From NCBI GenBank assembly GCA_937930495.1, contig CALGKL010000134.1:1-12306 (forward strand): a stretch of 12,306 nucleotides of DNA, in the 5' to 3' direction. The DNA is from an uncultured Gloeocapsa sp. GTDB taxonomy: Bacteria; Cyanobacteriota; Cyanobacteriia; Cyanobacteriales; Gloeocapsaceae. Positions within the stretch are counted from its first letter, which is position 1. Each line of letters begins with the position of its first letter. The position numbers were made by a program, and so were the translations under genes. Of the stretch, positions 1-7,587 are shown piece after piece. Below the pieces are notes generated by a model. The model was given only the letters and a program-made list of their open reading frames with translations. It made no database searches and had not been told where the DNA came from.

Positions 1-117
1 CCAGATATGGAGTGTGGAGATATGACCATGACGGAGGGATTTTTCTCGTCTTGCGTGGGCGGAGATTTGTTTAATGGGGAGGTCGATTTCGATTAATCTT
101 TTGGGATAGGCTGACAT
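1..117 (-). CDS. DUF1156-domain DNA methylase, N-terminal fragment (gene runs off the left edge)
   Basis: The frame opens with ATG at 115-117 and stays open for 39 codons to the window edge. The visible peptide begins [16 protein letters not shown] and continues with a Ser-Ala-His-Ala-Arg-Arg-Glu-Lys stretch, then Arg-His-Gly-His and a final Leu-His-Ile-Trp. This is the conserved opening of DUF1156 proteins (COG1743-type predicted adenine-specific DNA methylases); in the family it leads into a tryptophan- and arginine-rich segment and then the methylase domain. The catalytic motifs are off the window, so methylase activity is inferred from the family. The start lies 12 bases after the helicase stop codon, so the two genes are almost certainly co-transcribed. 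No clear Shine-Dalgarno sequence precedes the ATG. In defence loci such methylases are thought to mark host DNA. Confidence 0.72.
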
Positions 118-129
118 AGGGTTTTTAGA

Positions 130-3100
130 CTAAGGGGTTTGGGATTCGAGTCTTTTTTGGATTATCTGTTGAAAATCGATTTGATAATGTTCAACCTTAG
201 AGATTGGTTGCCAACCTAGTTTGACAGGGTCGTTGAGACAGTGTATTTCTGGGTTGGTTGTACAATTAAATACCACGTAAAGCCAATAGTCATGTTTGAG
301 ACGTTGTGCTGTTTTGTATTCATTTGTAGTTAAGGCGATATCTCCGACAGTAGCTCTCCCTTTAACCTCGATAAATCTGACATTGGTAGCGGTTTGGGGG
401 TCTTCTGGGTGTGGTAAGCGGGAGATTAGATCAAAACCGCGATTTTCTCTTTCTACACTTTCTACTCTCCAACCCCTGCTTTCTTCGTATTTAATCACCG
501 CTTCTATGGCTATTTTCTCTATCTCTTCATTACTGATTATTTCAGCTAAGGGGGAAATATGGCGATCGGGGTGCGGTAATACCCATGCTCTACCGTAATG
601 ACGGATATCGGCGATCGCCAAGGTTTGTTCTTGTTTTAATTCTTGTAGACGAGTATCGAGACGATGATTTAACTCGGAGAGTCGATCCTCTGCTTGTTTG
701 ATTCTACCATCTAGTCCTGGTTCGGTTGAGCCTGATTCTTTTTTTTGGACTAGATCAGCTAATTTACAATTTTCTCGATCGATAATGGTGTTGAGGCTAA
801 TCTGGATGTGTCTGGTGATGGTCTTAACTTCCTTGAGTTTTTCTGCTTTTACCTCTTCTAACAGTGGTTGTAAAGCTTCTGTGATTAGTTTATGTTCTAA
901 TTGTTGTTTGGTTGGTAAATTACTGGTGTCTAGGGGTTGTCTCTCCCCGGTTATGGGAATCAAGTCTAAAAATATCGTTGGTTGTCTAACGGTAATATTG
1001 CCGTTTAAATCGCTTTCTGTGACAAAAAGCTTCTGATGAAGAACATTACCCCGTCCATCCACAATACTACCAGTAAAAACATCAAGCATCACCGGTGCGG
1101 AACGATATAAATCGTAAAATATAGCACCTGCTCTCAAATGATTTTGGGATTCTTGGTCGATCGCCTTTCTCACGGTCTCAAACAGGGGATGACCAGGGGT
1201 TACCCATTCTAGGGTAGGATTCTCTTGGAGAAGGTCTTTGTTAAAGACTACCTGTTTATATTCCCTCCCGAGTTTACCGAAATTGTTCTCTAATTGATCG
1301 CCGATGGACCAAAGAGTGCGGGGAATCTTGCCAATCTGAAATATATGGGAATTTTTACGAATTGCTTTGGGATAAATACCCACCAGGGGTGCTGCAGCTA
1401 GGAAAAATTCTTCGATGCTTTCGGTTGTAAGTTTAGACTCTTTCATCTCGACATTTTGACCAAGCTGTTTGATCAAATTGCAGTCACGTTTAGCTAATCC
1501 TTCTAAAGCGGAATTAGTAATTCGTCGAAAATGTTCGATATCAACGGATTGGACAATGCGAGCGACAATGTCTTGTTCGGTTAAGCTTCTGGTGTACATA
1601 TCTCGCAGCATTTTCTCTAATTGATTAGAAGGAAAGATATCCCCGAGAACATTAAAGACTTTACCGGTTTTTTCCGGGTCTAAATCTGCTTCGATATTTC
1701 TAATCCGCTCGAATAGCTTTTCTAATACTCTCCCTTCACGAGTATTCTCAGCGACAAAATTAAAGATTAAACAGTCCTTTTCTTGACCATAGCGGTGGAT
1801 TCTTCCCATTCTTTGCTCTAGACGAATCGGATTCCAGGGAATATCATAGTTAATCATCAACCAGCAAAACTGCAGATTTATCCCCTCTCCTGCTGCTTCT
1901 GTGGCTACTAAGACTTGACAATCTTCTCTAAATTCTTTTTCGGCGTAAATCCTGGTTCCAGGGGTGTCCCTATCCCCAATTTGCATCCCTCCGTGGATTT
2001 GGGTAACCTTTAAACCCCAATCCCTTAATTTACCCACTAGGTAGTCGAGGGTATCTTTATGTTCGGTAAAAATCAGTAATTTGGTGTTTGGGTTTTGAAA
2101 AATACCTTCTTGAGTGATTATTTTTTTTAATTCGACTAATTTTGTTTCAATTTCTCGTTTTTCTAGTTCTAAAGCCATACGAATTAAGCCTTGGAGTTGG
2201 CTAATTTCTTTTTGCAAGTCTTGGGGATTGATGAAAACAACCACATTTTCTAAATCACTGATAATCTTTTCCTGTTCGGCTTCGGTCATTTCTTCGAAGT
2301 CTTTGGGTAATTTTTTGATTATTTCCTCTTGGCGATAGACTTCGGGGTTTTCTAATATCTTCTCCCGTTTGTTTTTCATTCGTTCTAGGGAACGACGTAC
2401 GGCATAAATACTGGAAGCGAAGCGACGCTGGAGCATTGCCATGGTAAAGCCTAATACTTTGCCTTTAATTTGGTCTTTTTGAAGGGCTTGGATTGATTGC
2501 TCTTCGACGTAATCGGTTAACTCGTTGTAGAGAGCAAATTCCTCTTGATCGATTTGAAAAGGGATTGTCTTGACTCGACGATTGGTGAATAATTTTTTTA
2601 CCTCTCCTGTTTGCGGATCCGGGAAAGTCATTAAAGCTTCCTTGGTTCGACGGAGATAAAAGGGTGCTTCGTTGCGTCTTATTGCTTCTTCTAGGCTTTT
2701 GACGTCGCCATAAACGTCTTTATCTAAAAGTTCTAGGAATAAACAGAAATTTTGGGGGTCGCCTTTATGGGGTGTAGCGGTCATCAAAAGGTAGTGGTCG
2801 GTCATTTCTGAGAGTTTTTCCCCTAATTCGTAGGCGAGGGTTTTTTTGTTTTTAGAGGCACTCATTTTGTGGGCTTCATCGACGATAATTAAATCCCAAT
2901 GGGATCTCAGCAGACTTTCTTTGGCATCGTCCTTCACCGCTACCCAAGAAATGGAGGTAACAACTTGATTTTTATCTTGCCAAGGGTTTTGACCGTAATT
3001 AGCTCTTAAGATATCGCCTTTAATGACTTCAAAGTTTTCTCGAAATTTATCTTTCATTTCTCTTTGCCATTGAAAGGTGAGGTTAGCGGGAGAGAGAATG

Positions 3101-3564
3101 AGCACACGACGAACTAAACCTCTAATTTTTAATTCTTTGAGGAGGAGTCCCGCCATAATCGTTTTTCCTGCTCCTGGATCATCAGCAAGGAGAAAGCGGA
3201 TTCTCGGTAGTTTGAGAAAATATTCGTATACCGCCTCTAGTTGATGGGGAAGAGGGTCAACCCGTGACATAGCCAGGGAAAAATAGGGGTCGTATTCATG
3301 GGCTAAACTCCAACTCATCGCTTCAACTCCGAGACGGAATAGTCCAGGGTCTCCGTTAAAAGGCTCTGTATCGGGTTCTATTTGTAATTGCTTGATTTGC
3401 TCACTGGTTAAAATGAGATCATAAACTTGGTTGGTATTTAACCCTCTACCTATTAACTTACAACTATTGTCACTAATTGATTTGACGATGATTATGGCAA
3501 CAGGTTCTGGAAAAAAAGGACCTCTGACGATTCGGTCTGGTTTAAGCTGTGTTGGATCTAGCAT
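130..3564 (-). CDS. SNF2-family helicase with C-terminal DUF3883 domain; candidate anti-phage defence protein (DrmD-like)
   Basis: A predicted 1144-residue ATP-dependent nucleic-acid translocase. Numbered from the ATG at 3564, it shows a PHQ motif near 106, a Walker A loop DDPGAGKT at 128-135, the DEAH box at 229-232 and motif III MTATP at 261-265. The second RecA-like lobe has TEAAGEGINLQ at 555-565 and QRMGRIHRYGQ at 584-594. A charged, probably coiled-coil stretch spans about 950-988. The C-terminal DUF3883 region holds GFDL at 1043-1046 and EVKGR from 1066, a D...ExK arrangement resembling restriction-type nuclease folds. A TTG at 3657 would add 31 residues, but it lies inside a consensus -10 box and those residues look non-conserved, so the ATG is preferred. 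The gene is followed 12 bases later by a DUF1156 methylase. That order matches drmD-drmMI of class 1 DISARM or a DUF1156/DUF499 cluster; the rest of the cassette is not visible. The helicase call is firm and the defence role is inferred. Confidence 0.88.
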   Translation of the reverse strand: MLDPTQLKPDRIVRGPFFPEPVAIIIVKSISDNSCKLIGRGLNTNQVYDLILTSEQIKQLQIEPDTEPFNGDPGLFRLGVEAMSWSLAHEYDPYFSLAMSRVDPLPHQLEAVYEYFLKLPRIRFLLADDPGAGKTIMAGLLLKELKIRGLVRRVLILSPANLTFQWQREMKDKFRENFEVIKGDILRANYGQNPWQDKNQVVTSISWVAVKDDAKESLLRSHWDLIIVDEAHKMSASKNKKTLAYELGEKLSEMTDHYLLMTATPHKGDPQNFCLFLELLDKDVYGDVKSLEEAIRRNEAPFYLRRTKEALMTFPDPQTGEVKKLFTNRRVKTIPFQIDQEEFALYNELTDYVEEQSIQALQKDQIKGKVLGFTMAMLQRRFASSIYAVRRSLERMKNKREKILENPEVYRQEEIIKKLPKDFEEMTEAEQEKIISDLENVVVFINPQDLQKEISQLQGLIRMALELEKREIETKLVELKKIITQEGIFQNPNTKLLIFTEHKDTLDYLVGKLRDWGLKVTQIHGGMQIGDRDTPGTRIYAEKEFREDCQVLVATEAAGEGINLQFCWLMINYDIPWNPIRLEQRMGRIHRYGQEKDCLIFNFVAENTREGRVLEKLFERIRNIEADLDPEKTGKVFNVLGDIFPSNQLEKMLRDMYTRSLTEQDIVARIVQSVDIEHFRRITNSALEGLAKRDCNLIKQLGQNVEMKESKLTTESIEEFFLAAAPLVGIYPKAIRKNSHIFQIGKIPRTLWSIGDQLENNFGKLGREYKQVVFNKDLLQENPTLEWVTPGHPLFETVRKAIDQESQNHLRAGAIFYDLYRSAPVMLDVFTGSIVDGRGNVLHQKLFVTESDLNGNITVRQPTIFLDLIPITGERQPLDTSNLPTKQQLEHKLITEALQPLLEEVKAEKLKEVKTITRHIQISLNTIIDRENCKLADLVQKKESGSTEPGLDGRIKQAEDRLSELNHRLDTRLQELKQEQTLAIADIRHYGRAWVLPHPDRHISPLAEIISNEEIEKIAIEAVIKYEESRGWRVESVERENRGFDLISRLPHPEDPQTATNVRFIEVKGRATVGDIALTTNEYKTAQRLKHDYWLYVVFNCTTNPEIHCLNDPVKLGWQPISKVEHYQIDFQQIIQKRLESQTP

Positions 3565-3639
3565 TGTTTGATTTTCCGCTCTTTTGGTCAAGGAGTGAGA
3601 TGTTCCTAGTGAAGCAAGGGTTAGGGAAATATCTAATCT

Positions 3640-3662
3640 CCCATTATTATAATACAAATGGG
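3640..3662 (-). promoter_or_regulatory. Putative promoter and operator of the helicase gene
   Basis: Read on the minus strand, a perfect -10 hexamer TATAAT lies at 3651-3646. It sits in the 11-base loop of an inverted repeat whose arms are CCCATT (3662-3657) and AATGGG (3645-3640). No good -35 box is found 16-18 bases upstream. A start site about seven bases downstream of the -10 would give a leader of roughly 75 bases before the ATG at 3564. The palindrome around the -10 could be an operator, or the pairing could be chance in AT-rich DNA. Confidence 0.4.
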
Positions 3663-3680
3663 CCAGAAGGATACAGTATT

Positions 3681-6362
3681 TTAAAGGGTTTTTAACAGGG
3701 TTAATCCTTCCTCTCGATTAGAGATTTCACCATCAAGGGTAGCTTGGAGTAAGCGAGTAAGAATTTGTTTGTATTGTGGTCCGGGTTTGTAACCAAGGAG
3801 TTTTAAATCATGACCATTGAGGAGTGGTTTGACGTGAGCTAGGTGAGTAAGATAATGCCAAATTTTGCGTCGTTTGGGATAGTTAGTCTTAATCGCTACT
3901 AGGAGTAAACTGATCCAATCGTAAGGTTGTAAAAGATGATAAATCTGACTAGGAAGTTGGACAAGCTCGAGCTCGGTAGTGAGATGTTCTAAGAGTTGGG
4001 GTAACCTTTTGAGGCGATCGATACTATCTTTGGGAAGTTGTAAACTTTCCGCTAGGGGAATCGTCTTTTGAATGGGTAAGGAAGCAATGAGGATCTCTAG
4101 ACGGACTAACCAATGATTGCTTTTTTCCTCTGGAGTGATGAGGCGTAACCAGCGATCGCCGTAACGCAGTTGCCACCACAAAACCTGATTTAATTCTAAA
4201 GCTGGATCGAGACAGCGCAAAGCTTGTAAATGGTCTAATAATTTGAGTGCTTTTTGCCAATAACCAGCCGAGAGGATATATTTTAATTCTGCTTTGAGTC
4301 TAGTTGTCAAAGCTGGAGCTAGTCTATTTTCTCGACGTAACCTTTCATACACCCCACTGGCGATCGCGTATCTGATATAACCTTCGGTTTGTTCTTCAAT
4401 GGTAAAATTGAGCTTGACGGCAAAACGGACGGCGCGATAGATCCGGGTAGGATCTTCGATAAAACTGTTGGCGTGGAGTACCCTAATTTGACGAGATTGT
4501 AGGTCGAGATAACCTCCAAAAAAATCTAGCAATTCTCCCAATTTAGGGTTGGTCAGACGTATGGCCAAAGCATTGATCGTAAAATCTCTTCGGTAGAGGT
4601 CTTGACGAATGGAACTAGCTTCCACTTCCGGATTAGCCGCCGGATAGGGATAAAATTCTGTTCTCGCGGTGGCTATATCCATACACAGGGAGCCAAATTC
4701 AGGGTCCTGGTGCCAAGTTAAGGCAGCGGTTTGAAACTCCCCATGGATGGATAGACTAGCGTTGGGGTAAATGGTTTTAATGTGGTTAGCTAATTCTACC
4801 CCTGCACCGGGATCGGCGCTTTTATGGAAACCATCTACTACTAAATCTAGATCTTGGAGTAGAAGAGTTTGTCCTTGTTTAGCTAGGAGTAGGTCTCGTA
4901 CCGCACCGCCAACTAGGTATAAATGCCAACCTCGCTCCTGAGCAGCGGTGGCGATCGCTTGTAATAGTTGCCAAAAAGAGGGAGGTAAAAGTTGTTGTAA
5001 AGAGGGTAATAAACAGGAAATTAGGGCTATTTTGCGGCGATCTTTTTCCTGGCCATTATTTTGGTGTAATTGTCTCAAGACGTCGGTACGGGTGACTATC
5101 CCGATCAAATTGCCCGACTCTAACACGGGAAGACGTCCTATGTCGTAGGTGACCATTAACCCTTCTATTTCCTGGAGGGGGGTTTCTGGGGTGATGGTTT
5201 TGAGATTGCGGGTCATATACCCTTTGACGGGAGCGTGACTAAAACCGTGATGTAAGGCTAAATCTAAATCTCGTCGGGAGATAATCCCTACTAATTGTCC
5301 TGTGCTATCGACTACGAATAAACCGGAATGTCCATAACGGAAGAGGATGCGTTCAGCTTGTTCAATCGTTGTTTCTGGGAGAATCGTGCGTACTGGTGAG
5401 GACATGATTTCTCTAGCGGTGACCGGAGAGGGGATTTGTCTGGTGAATTCTTCCCTGATTTTGCTTAAGGTTTTCTCTGGGTCAAGACAACGCATACTTA
5501 CAGAAGCGGCGCTACTGTGTCCTCCTCCTCCATAAGGGCTGAATAATTGGGCTAGATTGGTTTGGGGAATCCGCGATCGCCCGATGATGGTTAAATAGGG
5601 TTCTTGACTTTTTTGATAATAATGGGCGACAAACAGAGCGTCTATTTCTACTAGTTCTAATAGTCTTTCTGTTAAACTCGATAAACCCGGGACGAATTTA
5701 CTCGTCTCTAATAATACCCACCCGAGTTGATATCCCTGTGTTTCTTCTGTTTTGATTTTGGCGATCGCTTCGGCTAGCAGTTTTTGCAGTTGGGGTGATA
5801 AACTCGGATCTACGTATTCTGAGACAATTTTGACATTAGCTCCCTGACTCATCAACCAGGCTAAGGCTTGAGCGTCTCTGGCTGTGCTTTGTTCAAAGGT
5901 TAAAGAGCCTGTATCTACGTGGATTCCTAGAGCCATTACCGTTGCCGCAAATTGATTGGGGGTAATCCCCGCTCTTTGTAATTTCTCTACTACTAAAGTA
6001 GTCGTCGCCCCCACTGGTTCTATATATCTTTCTGTGAAGGGAATATCCGTCTCTTGTTTGTAGCAATGATGATCGTAGATGATTATTTGTGTTAATTGTG
6101 CTTGGGTTAGCCATTCTTTAGCCTTGCCTAGGCGATCGCTTTGTTGCGTATCTACTATAATTAAAGAACGAATTAACTTTGGGTTGACGCTACGTCGTTC
6201 GAGTAAGGGAAATTCATCCCGATACAAAGCTAAAAAATTGCTGACTCCTGGATGTGCTCCTCCGGTTAAGACTATTCTGGCGCCGTGATAGAGCAAACTC
6301 AGCCCTACCCCAGCGCCGAGAGCGTCAAAATCTGCCGTTTGATGGCATAAAATTAAGTCCAT
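3681..6362 (-). CDS. DHH phosphoesterase - CBS - tRNA nucleotidyltransferase (CCA-, CC- or A-adding) fusion protein
   Basis: An 893-residue multidomain protein. Residues 1-310 form a DHH/DHHA1 phosphoesterase: H7, D11 and D13 in motif I, D71, the DHH triad at 97-99, D150, and the glycine-rich [10 protein letters not shown] at 278-287. Two CBS domains follow at about 316-370 and 380-433; these usually bind adenine nucleotides. The C-terminal half is a class II nucleotidyltransferase: LVGGAVRD at 483-490, the metal-binding DLD at 504-506, [10 protein letters not shown] at 591-600 and [13 protein letters not shown] at 636-648. All catalytic residues that can be located are present. The family repairs or adds the tRNA 3' CCA end; in some lineages, including Synechocystis, CC and A addition are split between two related enzymes, and sequence alone does not say which this is. 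The often-used label poly(A) polymerase is less likely. ATG at 6362 is chosen over a TTG two codons upstream. The gene carries six HIP1 octamers and is divergent from psbZ. Confidence 0.9.
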
Positions 6363-6496
6363 CCACAAATAATTTACGAGCCGTTGACTCCTAAAATAGT
6401 ATCATAACTAAAGTCATGATTGTGTGGAGCAAGTCGTCTAGGTTTGTAACTGATGACCTTGTTAACTAAAAGTTTCTGTTTCAGGAGAAGTTCAAA
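6363..6496. promoter_or_regulatory. Divergent intergenic region between the CBS/nucleotidyltransferase gene and psbZ
   Basis: These 134 bases must hold promoters for both flanking genes. For the minus-strand gene, TATGAT (6406-6401) is a plausible -10 box, but the best -35 (TTGCTC) is about 20 bases away. On the plus strand TTGACT (6384-6389) resembles a -35 but has no good -10 at the right distance. The psbZ promoter could not be placed. No hairpin or coding sequence was seen. Confidence 0.35.
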
Positions 6497-7359: not shown

Positions 7360-7431
7360 GCGGGTATAGCTCAGCGGTAGAGCGCCACCTTGCCAAGGTG
7401 GATGTCGCGCGTTCGAATCGCGTTACCCGCT
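7360..7431 (+). tRNA. tRNA-Gly, anticodon GCC
   Basis: A complete cloverleaf of 72 bases including the discriminator U. The acceptor arm GCGGGTA pairs with TACCCGC. The D arm is GCTC/GAGC and the anticodon stem CCACC/GGTGG encloses the loop TTGCCAA, giving anticodon GCC. The T arm GCGCG/CGCGT, with one G-U pair, holds the standard TTCGAAT loop. The 3' CCA is not encoded and must be added after transcription. The gene has its own strong promoter and faces a tRNA-Ala gene on the other strand. Confidence 0.97.
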
Positions 7432-7477
7432 TTTGATATTTCAGGGTTTAGATAAGACTTGCTCCGGGGGTGATCCA

Positions 7478-7509
7478 CATGGGGTTTGGGGTAGTAATTA
7501 AACCCTATG
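7478..7509. terminator. Hairpin between two convergent tRNA genes
   Basis: CATGGGGTTT (7478-7487) and AAACCCTATG (7500-7509) pair over ten bases with one G-T wobble, around a 12-base loop. The hairpin begins 46 bases after tRNA-Gly and overlaps the last two bases of tRNA-Ala on the other strand. It could end transcription from either side or guide 3' trimming, but neither strand has a proper U-run after the stem, so it is not a classical intrinsic terminator. Confidence 0.35.
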
Positions 7510-7580
7510 GAGAATAGGGAACTCGAATCCCTGACCTCTGCGGTGCGATCGCAGCGCTCTACCAACTGAGCTAATTCCCC
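7508..7580 (-). tRNA. tRNA-Ala, anticodon CGC
   Basis: A complete 73-base cloverleaf on the minus strand. The acceptor GGGGAAT pairs with ATTCTCC and includes the G3-U70 wobble that identifies alanine tRNAs; the discriminator is A. The D arm is GCTC/GAGC. The anticodon stem CTGCG/CGCAG encloses the loop ATCGCAC with anticodon CGC, reading GCG. The T arm AGGGA/TCCCT holds the loop TTCGAGT. CCA is not encoded. The loop has an unusual A32-C38 combination, and the anticodon arm contains a complete HIP1 octamer at 7545-7552. Confidence 0.96.
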
Positions 7581-7587
7581 TGGTTAA

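What the first reader, a model, noticed from the sequence alone, without database searches (positions are those of the whole stretch)
1..3564. Edge of a probable anti-phage defence cassette: SNF2/DUF3883 helicase followed by DUF1156 methylase
The helicase stop and the methylase ATG are 12 bases apart on the same strand, and both families recur together in defence islands. The order helicase then methylase fits class 1 DISARM (drmD-drmMI), but a DUF1156/DUF499 ATPase cluster is also possible. The cassette sits directly beside housekeeping genes, so its right boundary lies between this helicase and the tRNA nucleotidyltransferase gene. Family recognition is from motifs; the system type is inference.
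Basis: partly seen in the sequence, partly recalled or inferred. Interest (0 to 1): 0.7.

Follow-up and report, generated by a model that had tools for sequence, protein, structure and literature searches.

The report
Cut-off Hma anti-phage cassette in cyanobacterium
The end of this contig holds one complete gene and the start of a second from a known kind of bacterial anti-phage system (a DNA motor with a DNA-cutting end, plus a DNA-marking enzyme); it is a good example of that kind rather than a new one.

Summary
On the minus strand lie a complete SNF2 helicase with a C-terminal DUF3883/NOV_C nuclease domain (130-3564) and, 12 bases on, the first 39 codons of a DUF1156 methylase (1-117), cut by the contig end. 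The best-supported system is Hma (helicase, methylase, ATPase), also published as the Type-1 DUF499-centred BREX-related system, not class 1 DISARM: PADLOC HmaA 636 bits against DrmD 439; NCBI's DrmD cut-off missed, 379 of 610; the 39 residues match only HmaB in PADLOC. A DUF1156 methylase follows in 54 of 58 relatives' loci with 3 kb held beyond the helicase, and a DUF499 ATPase in 38 of 45 with 6.5 kb. The ATPase was not found in this 77%-complete genome and is inferred. The place beside the tRNA nucleotidyltransferase gene is not conserved: no helicase in 29 other loci, 27 with about 1.5 kb held. The helicase lies on a well-supported branch apart from the modelled HmaA. A DrmB-like gene on another contig of this genome leaves DISARM a small chance. 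Known kind, modest interest.

The parts
130..3564 (-). HmaA: RapA/SNF2-type helicase with C-terminal NOV_C (DUF3883) PD-(D/E)XK nuclease domain, 1144 aa, complete
   Evidence: PADLOC HmaA 635.7 bits, residues 5-1100; Pfam; motifs; model, RapA fold
3157..3186 (-). Helicase motif I (residues 127-136, ADDPGAGKTI)
   Evidence: G131, A132, G133, K134, T135 in 53 of 53 rows
2869..2880 (-). Helicase motif II (DEAH, residues 229-232)
   Evidence: D, E, H in 53 of 53 rows; A in 51 of 53
238..522 (-). NOV_C nuclease domain (residues 1015-1109); putative catalytic E1016, D1045, E1066, K1068
   Evidence: NOV_C 75.9 bits; E1016, E1066, K1068 in 53 of 53 rows, D1045 in 52 of 53
118..129 (.). 12-base spacer between helicase stop and methylase ATG
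1..117 (-). First 39 codons of HmaB (DUF1156 methylase), cut by the contig end
   Evidence: PF06634 35.1 bits; HmaB 39.2 bits; 20 of 61 relatives' starts share at least 33 of 39 residues
3565..3680 (.). 116-base spacer between the housekeeping gene and the cassette; no terminator-like site, 2 promoter-like matches in 3450-3760 against 0.9 (sd 0.8) in shuffles
3681..6368 (-). Boundary gene, not part of the cassette: DHH-CBS-tRNA nucleotidyltransferase protein

Best explanation
The window ends inside an hma operon (hmaA-hmaB-hmaC, also called Type-1 DUF499-centred BREX-related system), of which hmaA is complete, hmaB is cut and hmaC lies beyond the contig. It most likely works like restriction-modification: HmaB methylates adenine in host DNA, the HmaC ATPase (BrxC-like) assembles a scanning complex on unmodified incoming DNA, and HmaA translocates on that DNA and cuts it with its C-terminal PD-(D/E)XK domain. 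Shown here: gene identities, order, intact motifs, the predicted fold of HmaA, and the three-gene neighbourhood in relatives. Inferred: presence of hmaC in this genome, methylation, cleavage and defence. The cassette stands at a place where relatives lack it, so it was probably gained there.
Against: No DUF499 match in the window's own genome, and only the cut start of HmaB; the genome is 77% complete. A DrmB-like protein (285 bits) exists on another contig. HmaA scores less than half of what three members of the modelled branch score (636 against 1503-1691 bits), so membership rests on neighbourhood as well as on the model. Whether the rest of hmaB is intact is unknown; in G030 hmaB looks broken near codons 46-49. 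Of 45 loci with room, 4 lack HmaB and 7 lack HmaC (L077, L082 and L083 are partial helicase matches).
Confidence: 0.87

Rival explanations
1. Class 1 DISARM (drmD-drmMI-drmA-drmB-drmC; gene set partly recalled): the helicase is DrmD and the methylase DrmMI.
For: DrmD models match at up to 438.8 bits and NCBIfam DrmD at 378.6. A DrmB-like gene (285 bits) lies on G000:C161.
Against: Below NCBI's DrmD cut-off of 610; HmaA scores higher and covers the nuclease domain. The start of the second gene matches only HmaB in PADLOC. L004 and pGM02 go on with HmaB and HmaC. The DrmB-like gene is preceded by a transporter-like and a dehydrogenase-like gene, and the congener G002 has its relative beside a pheT-like gene (names by eye), while the hma genes of G002 lie on other contigs.
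Confidence: 0.05
2. ARMADA type I: a BrxHII-like helicase and a PglX-like methylase precede a YprA-like helicase, an order reported for many archaea and cyanobacteria.
For: Same pair order; PMC12458937 (passages) says so for archaea and cyanobacteria. BrxH models match at 371 bits.
Against: HmaA is clearly better than BrxH, and the NOV_C nuclease is extra. The methylase start is DUF1156/HmaB; DUF1156 does not occur in that paper's main text. Relatives carry the DUF499-type ATPase.
Confidence: 0.03
3. A decayed or orphan helicase-methylase pair without the ATPase, no longer a working system.
For: No DUF499 in the assembled genome; 7 of 45 relatives' loci with room lack HmaC, 8 helicase spans of relatives have stops or frame breaks, and G046 keeps only a helicase fragment without DUF1156 or DUF499.
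Against: hmaA is open and its motifs are intact; a 1.82 Mb assembly in 344 contigs at 77% completeness can easily miss the next contig.
Confidence: 0.1
4. A mis-assembly joined the cassette to the housekeeping gene.
For: Fragmented assembly; none of the 29 other loci shows the junction.
Against: No direct sign of it; the genes on both sides have their best or nearly best relative in the same congener, G002 (86% and 82% identity). Read depth could not be seen.
Confidence: 0.05

Closest known systems
Hma system (PADLOC 2021, PMC8565338)
   Same: Helicase, DUF1156 methylase, and in relatives the ATPase, in one operon; best PADLOC model for each component.
   Different: HmaA scores 636 bits against 1503-1691 for three members of the modelled branch and lies on a separate branch with 100% local support. 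The 2021 paper calls HmaB an m5C methylase; the DPPY motif IV seen here fits adenine (N6) methylation better (motif reading recalled).
Type-1 DUF499-centred BREX-related (BR) system (PMC12839542, 2026)
   Same: RapA-like helicase with an added C-terminal PD-(D/E)XK domain, DUF1156 methylase, and in relatives the DUF499-type ATPase.
   Different: In 30 complete ATPases of relatives there is no room for an N-terminal HEPN domain (at most 36 extra residues), and 15 of 30 match an Ig-like motif near the C terminus (Big_2/LigA folds for L004). The paper reports tandem FnIII-like domains for 53% of Type-2 taxa; its Type-1 section does not mention them.
BREX type 3 (BrxHII, BrxXI, BrxC)
   Same: RapA-like helicase fold; ATPase model of L004 nearest to BrxC of Acinetobacter BREX.
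   Different: Extra nuclease domain on the helicase; DUF1156 start of the methylase; BrxH model 371 against HmaA 636 bits.
Class 1 DISARM
   Same: SNF2 helicase followed by a methylase.
   Different: DrmD below NCBI's cut-off; no drm genes beside it in the two near relatives read gene by gene.
ARMADA (PMC12458937)
   Same: Helicase-methylase pair order.
   Different: No DUF1156 in the paper's main text, and a YprA-like helicase as partner (passages).

Membership tests
Hma | HmaA helicase | tested here: met
   PADLOC HmaA 635.7 bits, residues 5-1100, best of 60 families
Hma | HmaB methylase adjacent | tested here: met
   Only for the first 39 codons: HmaB 39.2 bits, DUF1156 35.1 bits; the catalytic part lies beyond the contig
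Hma | HmaC ATPase in the operon | tested here: inconclusive
   Not found in the incomplete genome; present in 38 of 45 relatives' loci with room and in G002
Hma | Protects against phage | not testable with these tools
   PMC12839542 says a later study confirmed phage defence by HmaA; that study was not found or read
Type-1 BR system | Swi2/Snf2 core with RapA-like C-terminal domains | tested here: met
Type-1 BR system | Additional active PD-(D/E)XK domain at the C terminus | tested here: met
   NOV_C 75.9 bits; D1045, E1066, K1068 conserved. Activity not tested
Type-1 BR system | N-terminal Tudor domain | tested here: inconclusive
   Model has strands at 12-53 that look like a small barrel, and one RapA alignment starts at residue 23; the part was not searched by itself
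Type-1 BR system | No DUF3780 (Type-2) and no PglZ (Type-3) in the locus | tested here: inconclusive
   Not among the 25 families shown for 104 embedded and for 73 flanking ORFs of relatives, so at most a few members there; the window itself is cut
Class 1 DISARM | DrmD at family cut-off | tested here: not met
   378.6 bits against 610 (NF038317) and 216.6 against 950 (NF038318)
Class 1 DISARM | DrmB (DUF1998) in the operon | tested here: inconclusive
   None in the window; a DrmB-like gene (285 bits) on a separate contig, G000:C161. The MZB/DUF1998-type model rings in 4 of 6 genomes and 8 of 14 controls, so it alone is not DISARM-specific
Class 1 DISARM | DrmA and DrmC in the operon | not testable with these tools
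   Contig ends at position 1; not searched in G000 as separate genes
BREX type 3 | PglZ and BrxC in the locus | not tested
   Contig ends; not searched in G000
ARMADA | YprA-like helicase in the locus | not testable with these tools
   Contig ends at position 1

The most novel reading that the evidence does not exclude
The cassette belongs to an undescribed subtype of Hma/BR systems: a helicase branch of its own (56 of 71 rows, 17 phyla by the labels) in which the Type-1 helicase-nuclease is combined with an ATPase that has no HEPN domain but often an Ig-like (Big_2) domain before its C-terminal domain, as if mixing published Type-1 and Type-2 traits, and in which the gaps between the three genes serve as landing places for other defence and toxin-antitoxin genes.
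Probability: 0.35. Interest if true: 0.45.

Novelty: new member of a known kind. Interest (0 to 1): 0.3.

Why it matters
It settles, as far as the sequence allows, a choice between two systems that share a helicase-methylase pair: near relatives of this helicase sit in Hma operons, not in DISARM. It also marks a branch of Hma that the present HmaA model scores weakly, found across bacterial phyla and in archaea, with an ATPase architecture that the sections read of the 2026 classification do not describe. The compact spacing here (12 bases), against insertions of up to 6 kb in relatives, and the complete compact locus of L004 give a minimal three-gene version that could be cloned for a first test.

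Tried and rejected
Class 1 DISARM: rejected on family cut-off and neighbours, with the DrmB-like gene on C161 left as an open point. Rest of the operon: I looked for another contig of G000 carrying the rest of hmaB or hmaC; only the window's own end was found, and neither window end matches the end of another contig of G000. Explanation of the break by an assembler k-mer at a duplicated hmaB: the idea fits G002 but could not be tested for G000, so it is not used. Promoter and terminator scan at 3450-3760: 2 promoter-like sites (0.9 in shuffles), no terminator. RNA fold after HmaC in G002: not more stable than shuffles. Gene order as a difference from published Hma: dropped, because a plasmid of the modelled branch (L174) also has the helicase before the ATPase. 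Genes beside HmaA in L004, L131 and L173 gave one PADLOC hit among 8 proteins, DprA of L131 with ShosA and PsyrA models. Rows dropped before counts: 53 of 80 helicases were kept (8 left out for stops or frame breaks, the rest partial or too long); L010 was left out of the 53-row alignment and L097 (broken) out of the tree; 30 of 41 ATPases were complete enough; of 262 flanking ORFs listed, 73 were scanned, those of 339 aa or more and at most two per side and locus. The Pfam scan of two HmaC proteins gave no DUF499 hit, although the genome search did (79 and 81 bits); PADLOC HmaC matched both.
Full report
What is there. The window is the whole contig C134 of a genome of 1.82 Mb in 344 contigs, 77% complete. 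On the minus strand, in reading order, stand a DHH-CBS-tRNA nucleotidyltransferase gene (6368-3681), a spacer of 116 bases, a helicase gene (ATG 3564, stop 130-132, 1144 aa), 12 bases, and the first 39 codons of a second gene that leaves the contig. The other genes named are a lumazine synthase, a HAD hydrolase, a carbohydrate phosphorylase and a short-chain dehydrogenase. The two best named hits of the helicase are cyanobacterial, and G028, placed in the same order as the window's genome, has a contig of the same 22,168 bases and an identical helicase as Gomphosphaeria aponina; so the host is a cyanobacterium (inference).

The helicase. Pfam finds the SNF2 core, Helicase_C and, at residues 1015-1109, NOV_C; DUF3883 is called a novel REase domain fused to an SNF2 helicase in the DUF499 operon in PMC3710099 (passages). 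That NOV_C and DUF3883 are one family is recalled; the annotation of the pGM02 relative as a DUF3883 protein agrees. In an alignment of the window with 52 relatives, the core residues of motifs I, II, III, V and VI and the nuclease residues E1016, E1066 and K1068 are invariant and D1045 is present in 52 of 53 rows. The AlphaFold2 model (pLDDT 79, pTM 0.56) is nearest to RapA over residues up to 1000, leaving the nuclease domain as the extra part. That is the architecture PMC12839542 gives for the Type-1 BR helicase (section 29).

Which system. PADLOC ranks HmaA first (635.7 bits) before DrmD (438.8) and BrxH (371.2). NCBIfam's two DrmD models stay below their cut-offs. The 39 residues of the second gene match only HmaB models in PADLOC and DUF1156. 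The nearest named relative, L004, shows helicase, methylase and ATPase in a row with 20 and 32 bases between them, which PADLOC names HmaB and HmaC. One scan of the genome collection found 92 relatives of the helicase and kept 80 loci. A HmaB relative follows in 61 and a HmaC relative in 41, on the same strand. Many contigs are short: of 58 with at least 3 kb beyond the helicase match 54 have HmaB, and of 45 with at least 6.5 kb 41 have HmaB and 38 HmaC. Among 80 genomes (the window's own and 79 relatives), 21 have a helicase at E of 1e-100 or better; besides the window's own, five full-length ones are 65-82% identical and one (G046) is a fragment at 71%. The five genomes with a full-length one also hold DUF1156 or pieces of HmaB and DUF499, though hmaB of G030 looks broken near codons 46-49; G046 has neither. 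The annotated plasmid pGM02 of Geminocystis has the same three genes with a small gene in the first gap and a small gene plus VapC in the second, between integrases and a Tn3 transposase, so the cassette can be plasmid-borne.

The place. The gene beside which the cassette stands is found in 75 of 80 genomes, the window's included. Of the 74 others, the best 29 were fetched; no helicase lies within the held stretch after the gene, about 1.5 kb in 27 and only 92 and 195 bases in two. In the congener G002 the helicase (82% identical) stands after dprA; in G001 the tRNA gene is followed by a VWA-like gene and an atpD-like gene (names by eye).

Mechanism. PMC12839542 and PMC7641849 (passages) propose a restriction-modification logic with the methylase protecting self DNA, the DUF499 ATPase (CDC6/ORC-like, BrxC-like) acting on foreign DNA, and the helicase-nuclease restricting it. 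Here the parts agree: intact ATPase and nuclease motifs in HmaA; methylase motif I (DPFxGxG) in 32 and motif IV (DPPY type) in 34 of 36 complete HmaB rows of relatives; the L004 ATPase model (pLDDT 77, pTM 0.44) has BrxC of Acinetobacter as first fold match (E 2.2e-7). Nothing here tests methylation, cleavage or protection.

The branch. A tree of 71 helicases (FastTree, local support) puts the window and 55 others on one side of a branch with 100% support. Apart stand seven that include G001 of the same genus and a Thermus plasmid, and two smaller groups (five around L067, three around L090). Three of the seven that I scanned score 1503-1691 bits with the HmaA model; the window, L131 and L173 score 635-640, L090 662 and L067 575. 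The group names were mine and the root is a midpoint. In 30 complete ATPases no frame extends more than 36 residues upstream, so there is no HEPN domain, while the G001 ATPase has HEPN_Swt1. A stretch near the C terminus matches an Ig-like pattern, which I wrote after reading the rows, in 15 of 30, and three more (L040, L051, L063) resemble it by eye; the L004 model has a beta domain at 822-900 and Foldseek finds LigA and Big_2 domains. PMC12839542 describes tandem FnIII-like domains for 53% of Type-2 taxa and HEPN for 1370 of 2446 Type-1 taxa. Its supplement, which might list this branch, could not be read.

Embedding. Between the helicase and methylase matches the gap is 148 bases or less in 24 of 59 loci and 363 to 6063 in 35; between the methylase and ATPase matches 121 or less in 11 of 39 and 311 or more in 28. 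The 104 ORFs of 80 aa or more in these gaps include SLFN_AlbA_2 (6), AAA_15 (6), HD (5), DarT (3), HepT-like (3), PIN (2) and GmrSD (2) by Pfam, and match AriA (6), HEC-04 (5), PtuA (5) and HEC-01A (4) models of PADLOC; one ORF may match several models. That Septu genes sit in Hma is in print (PMC12255303, passage); that HEC stands for Hma-embedded candidates is recalled. The window has the compact form.

Doubts. The ATPase and most of the methylase are inferred from relatives. A DrmB-like gene (609 aa, 285 bits) lies at the end of contig C161, and a relative of it at the end of a contig of G002. Its upstream neighbours do not look like drm genes (by eye), and the hma genes of G002 are on other contigs, so I read it as unrelated to this cassette, but what follows it is not visible.

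Papers. Searches for Hma, DUF1156, DUF499 and DISARM terms. Seen as passages: PMC8565338, PMC12255303, PMC10273834, PMC3710099, PMC7641849, PMC9142583, PMC12458937; as passages and sections 29, 31, 33: PMC12839542. The experimental study on HmaA that PMC12839542 cites was not recognised in the listings of these searches.

Noticed in passing
G002 contigs C17 (L162:1-73) and C27 (L164:1-73): Both contigs begin with the same 55 bases, the 3' end of hmaB; one goes on to HmaC, the other to a ubiD-like gene (by eye). With contig C24 ending 52 bases into hmaB, hmaB looks present twice in this congener (or in two strains), one copy not followed by HmaC; only one helicase and one DUF499 match were found in G002.
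   Followed up: partly
G002: L129:9720-9771 and L162:4309-4360: The same 52 bases follow the tRNA nucleotidyltransferase gene and HmaC in the congener, at two contig ends; perhaps the end of one mobile element at both places, just where the window has its cassette.
   Followed up: partly
L185:73-1899 (-), contig G000:C161; L186:7565-9367 (+): DrmB-like gene of 609 aa at a contig end in the window's genome, and a relative at a contig end in G002.
   Followed up: partly
L131:6719-8223 and L162:221-827 (G002): Between HmaA and HmaB of the congener lie DUF3368/UPF0175 and DUF433/DUF5615 pairs (toxin-antitoxin-like); before HmaC a nucleotidyltransferase and BrnT.
   Followed up: partly
G001: L163 and L134: The other congener has a different Hma branch: HEPN_Swt1-DUF499 ATPase upstream of a DUF1156 gene on one contig, and an HmaA of 1642 bits on another.
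   Followed up: partly
window 7362-7584: The spacer between lumazine synthase and the HAD gene matches short repeats elsewhere in both congeners; 7362-7427 and 7507-7584 match the same place in G001 on opposite strands, like a palindromic repeat element.
   Followed up: no
L058:13514-13624: The first about 35 residues of HmaB run straight into sequence that looks like the inside of HmaC (by eye), as if a deletion had fused them.
   Followed up: no
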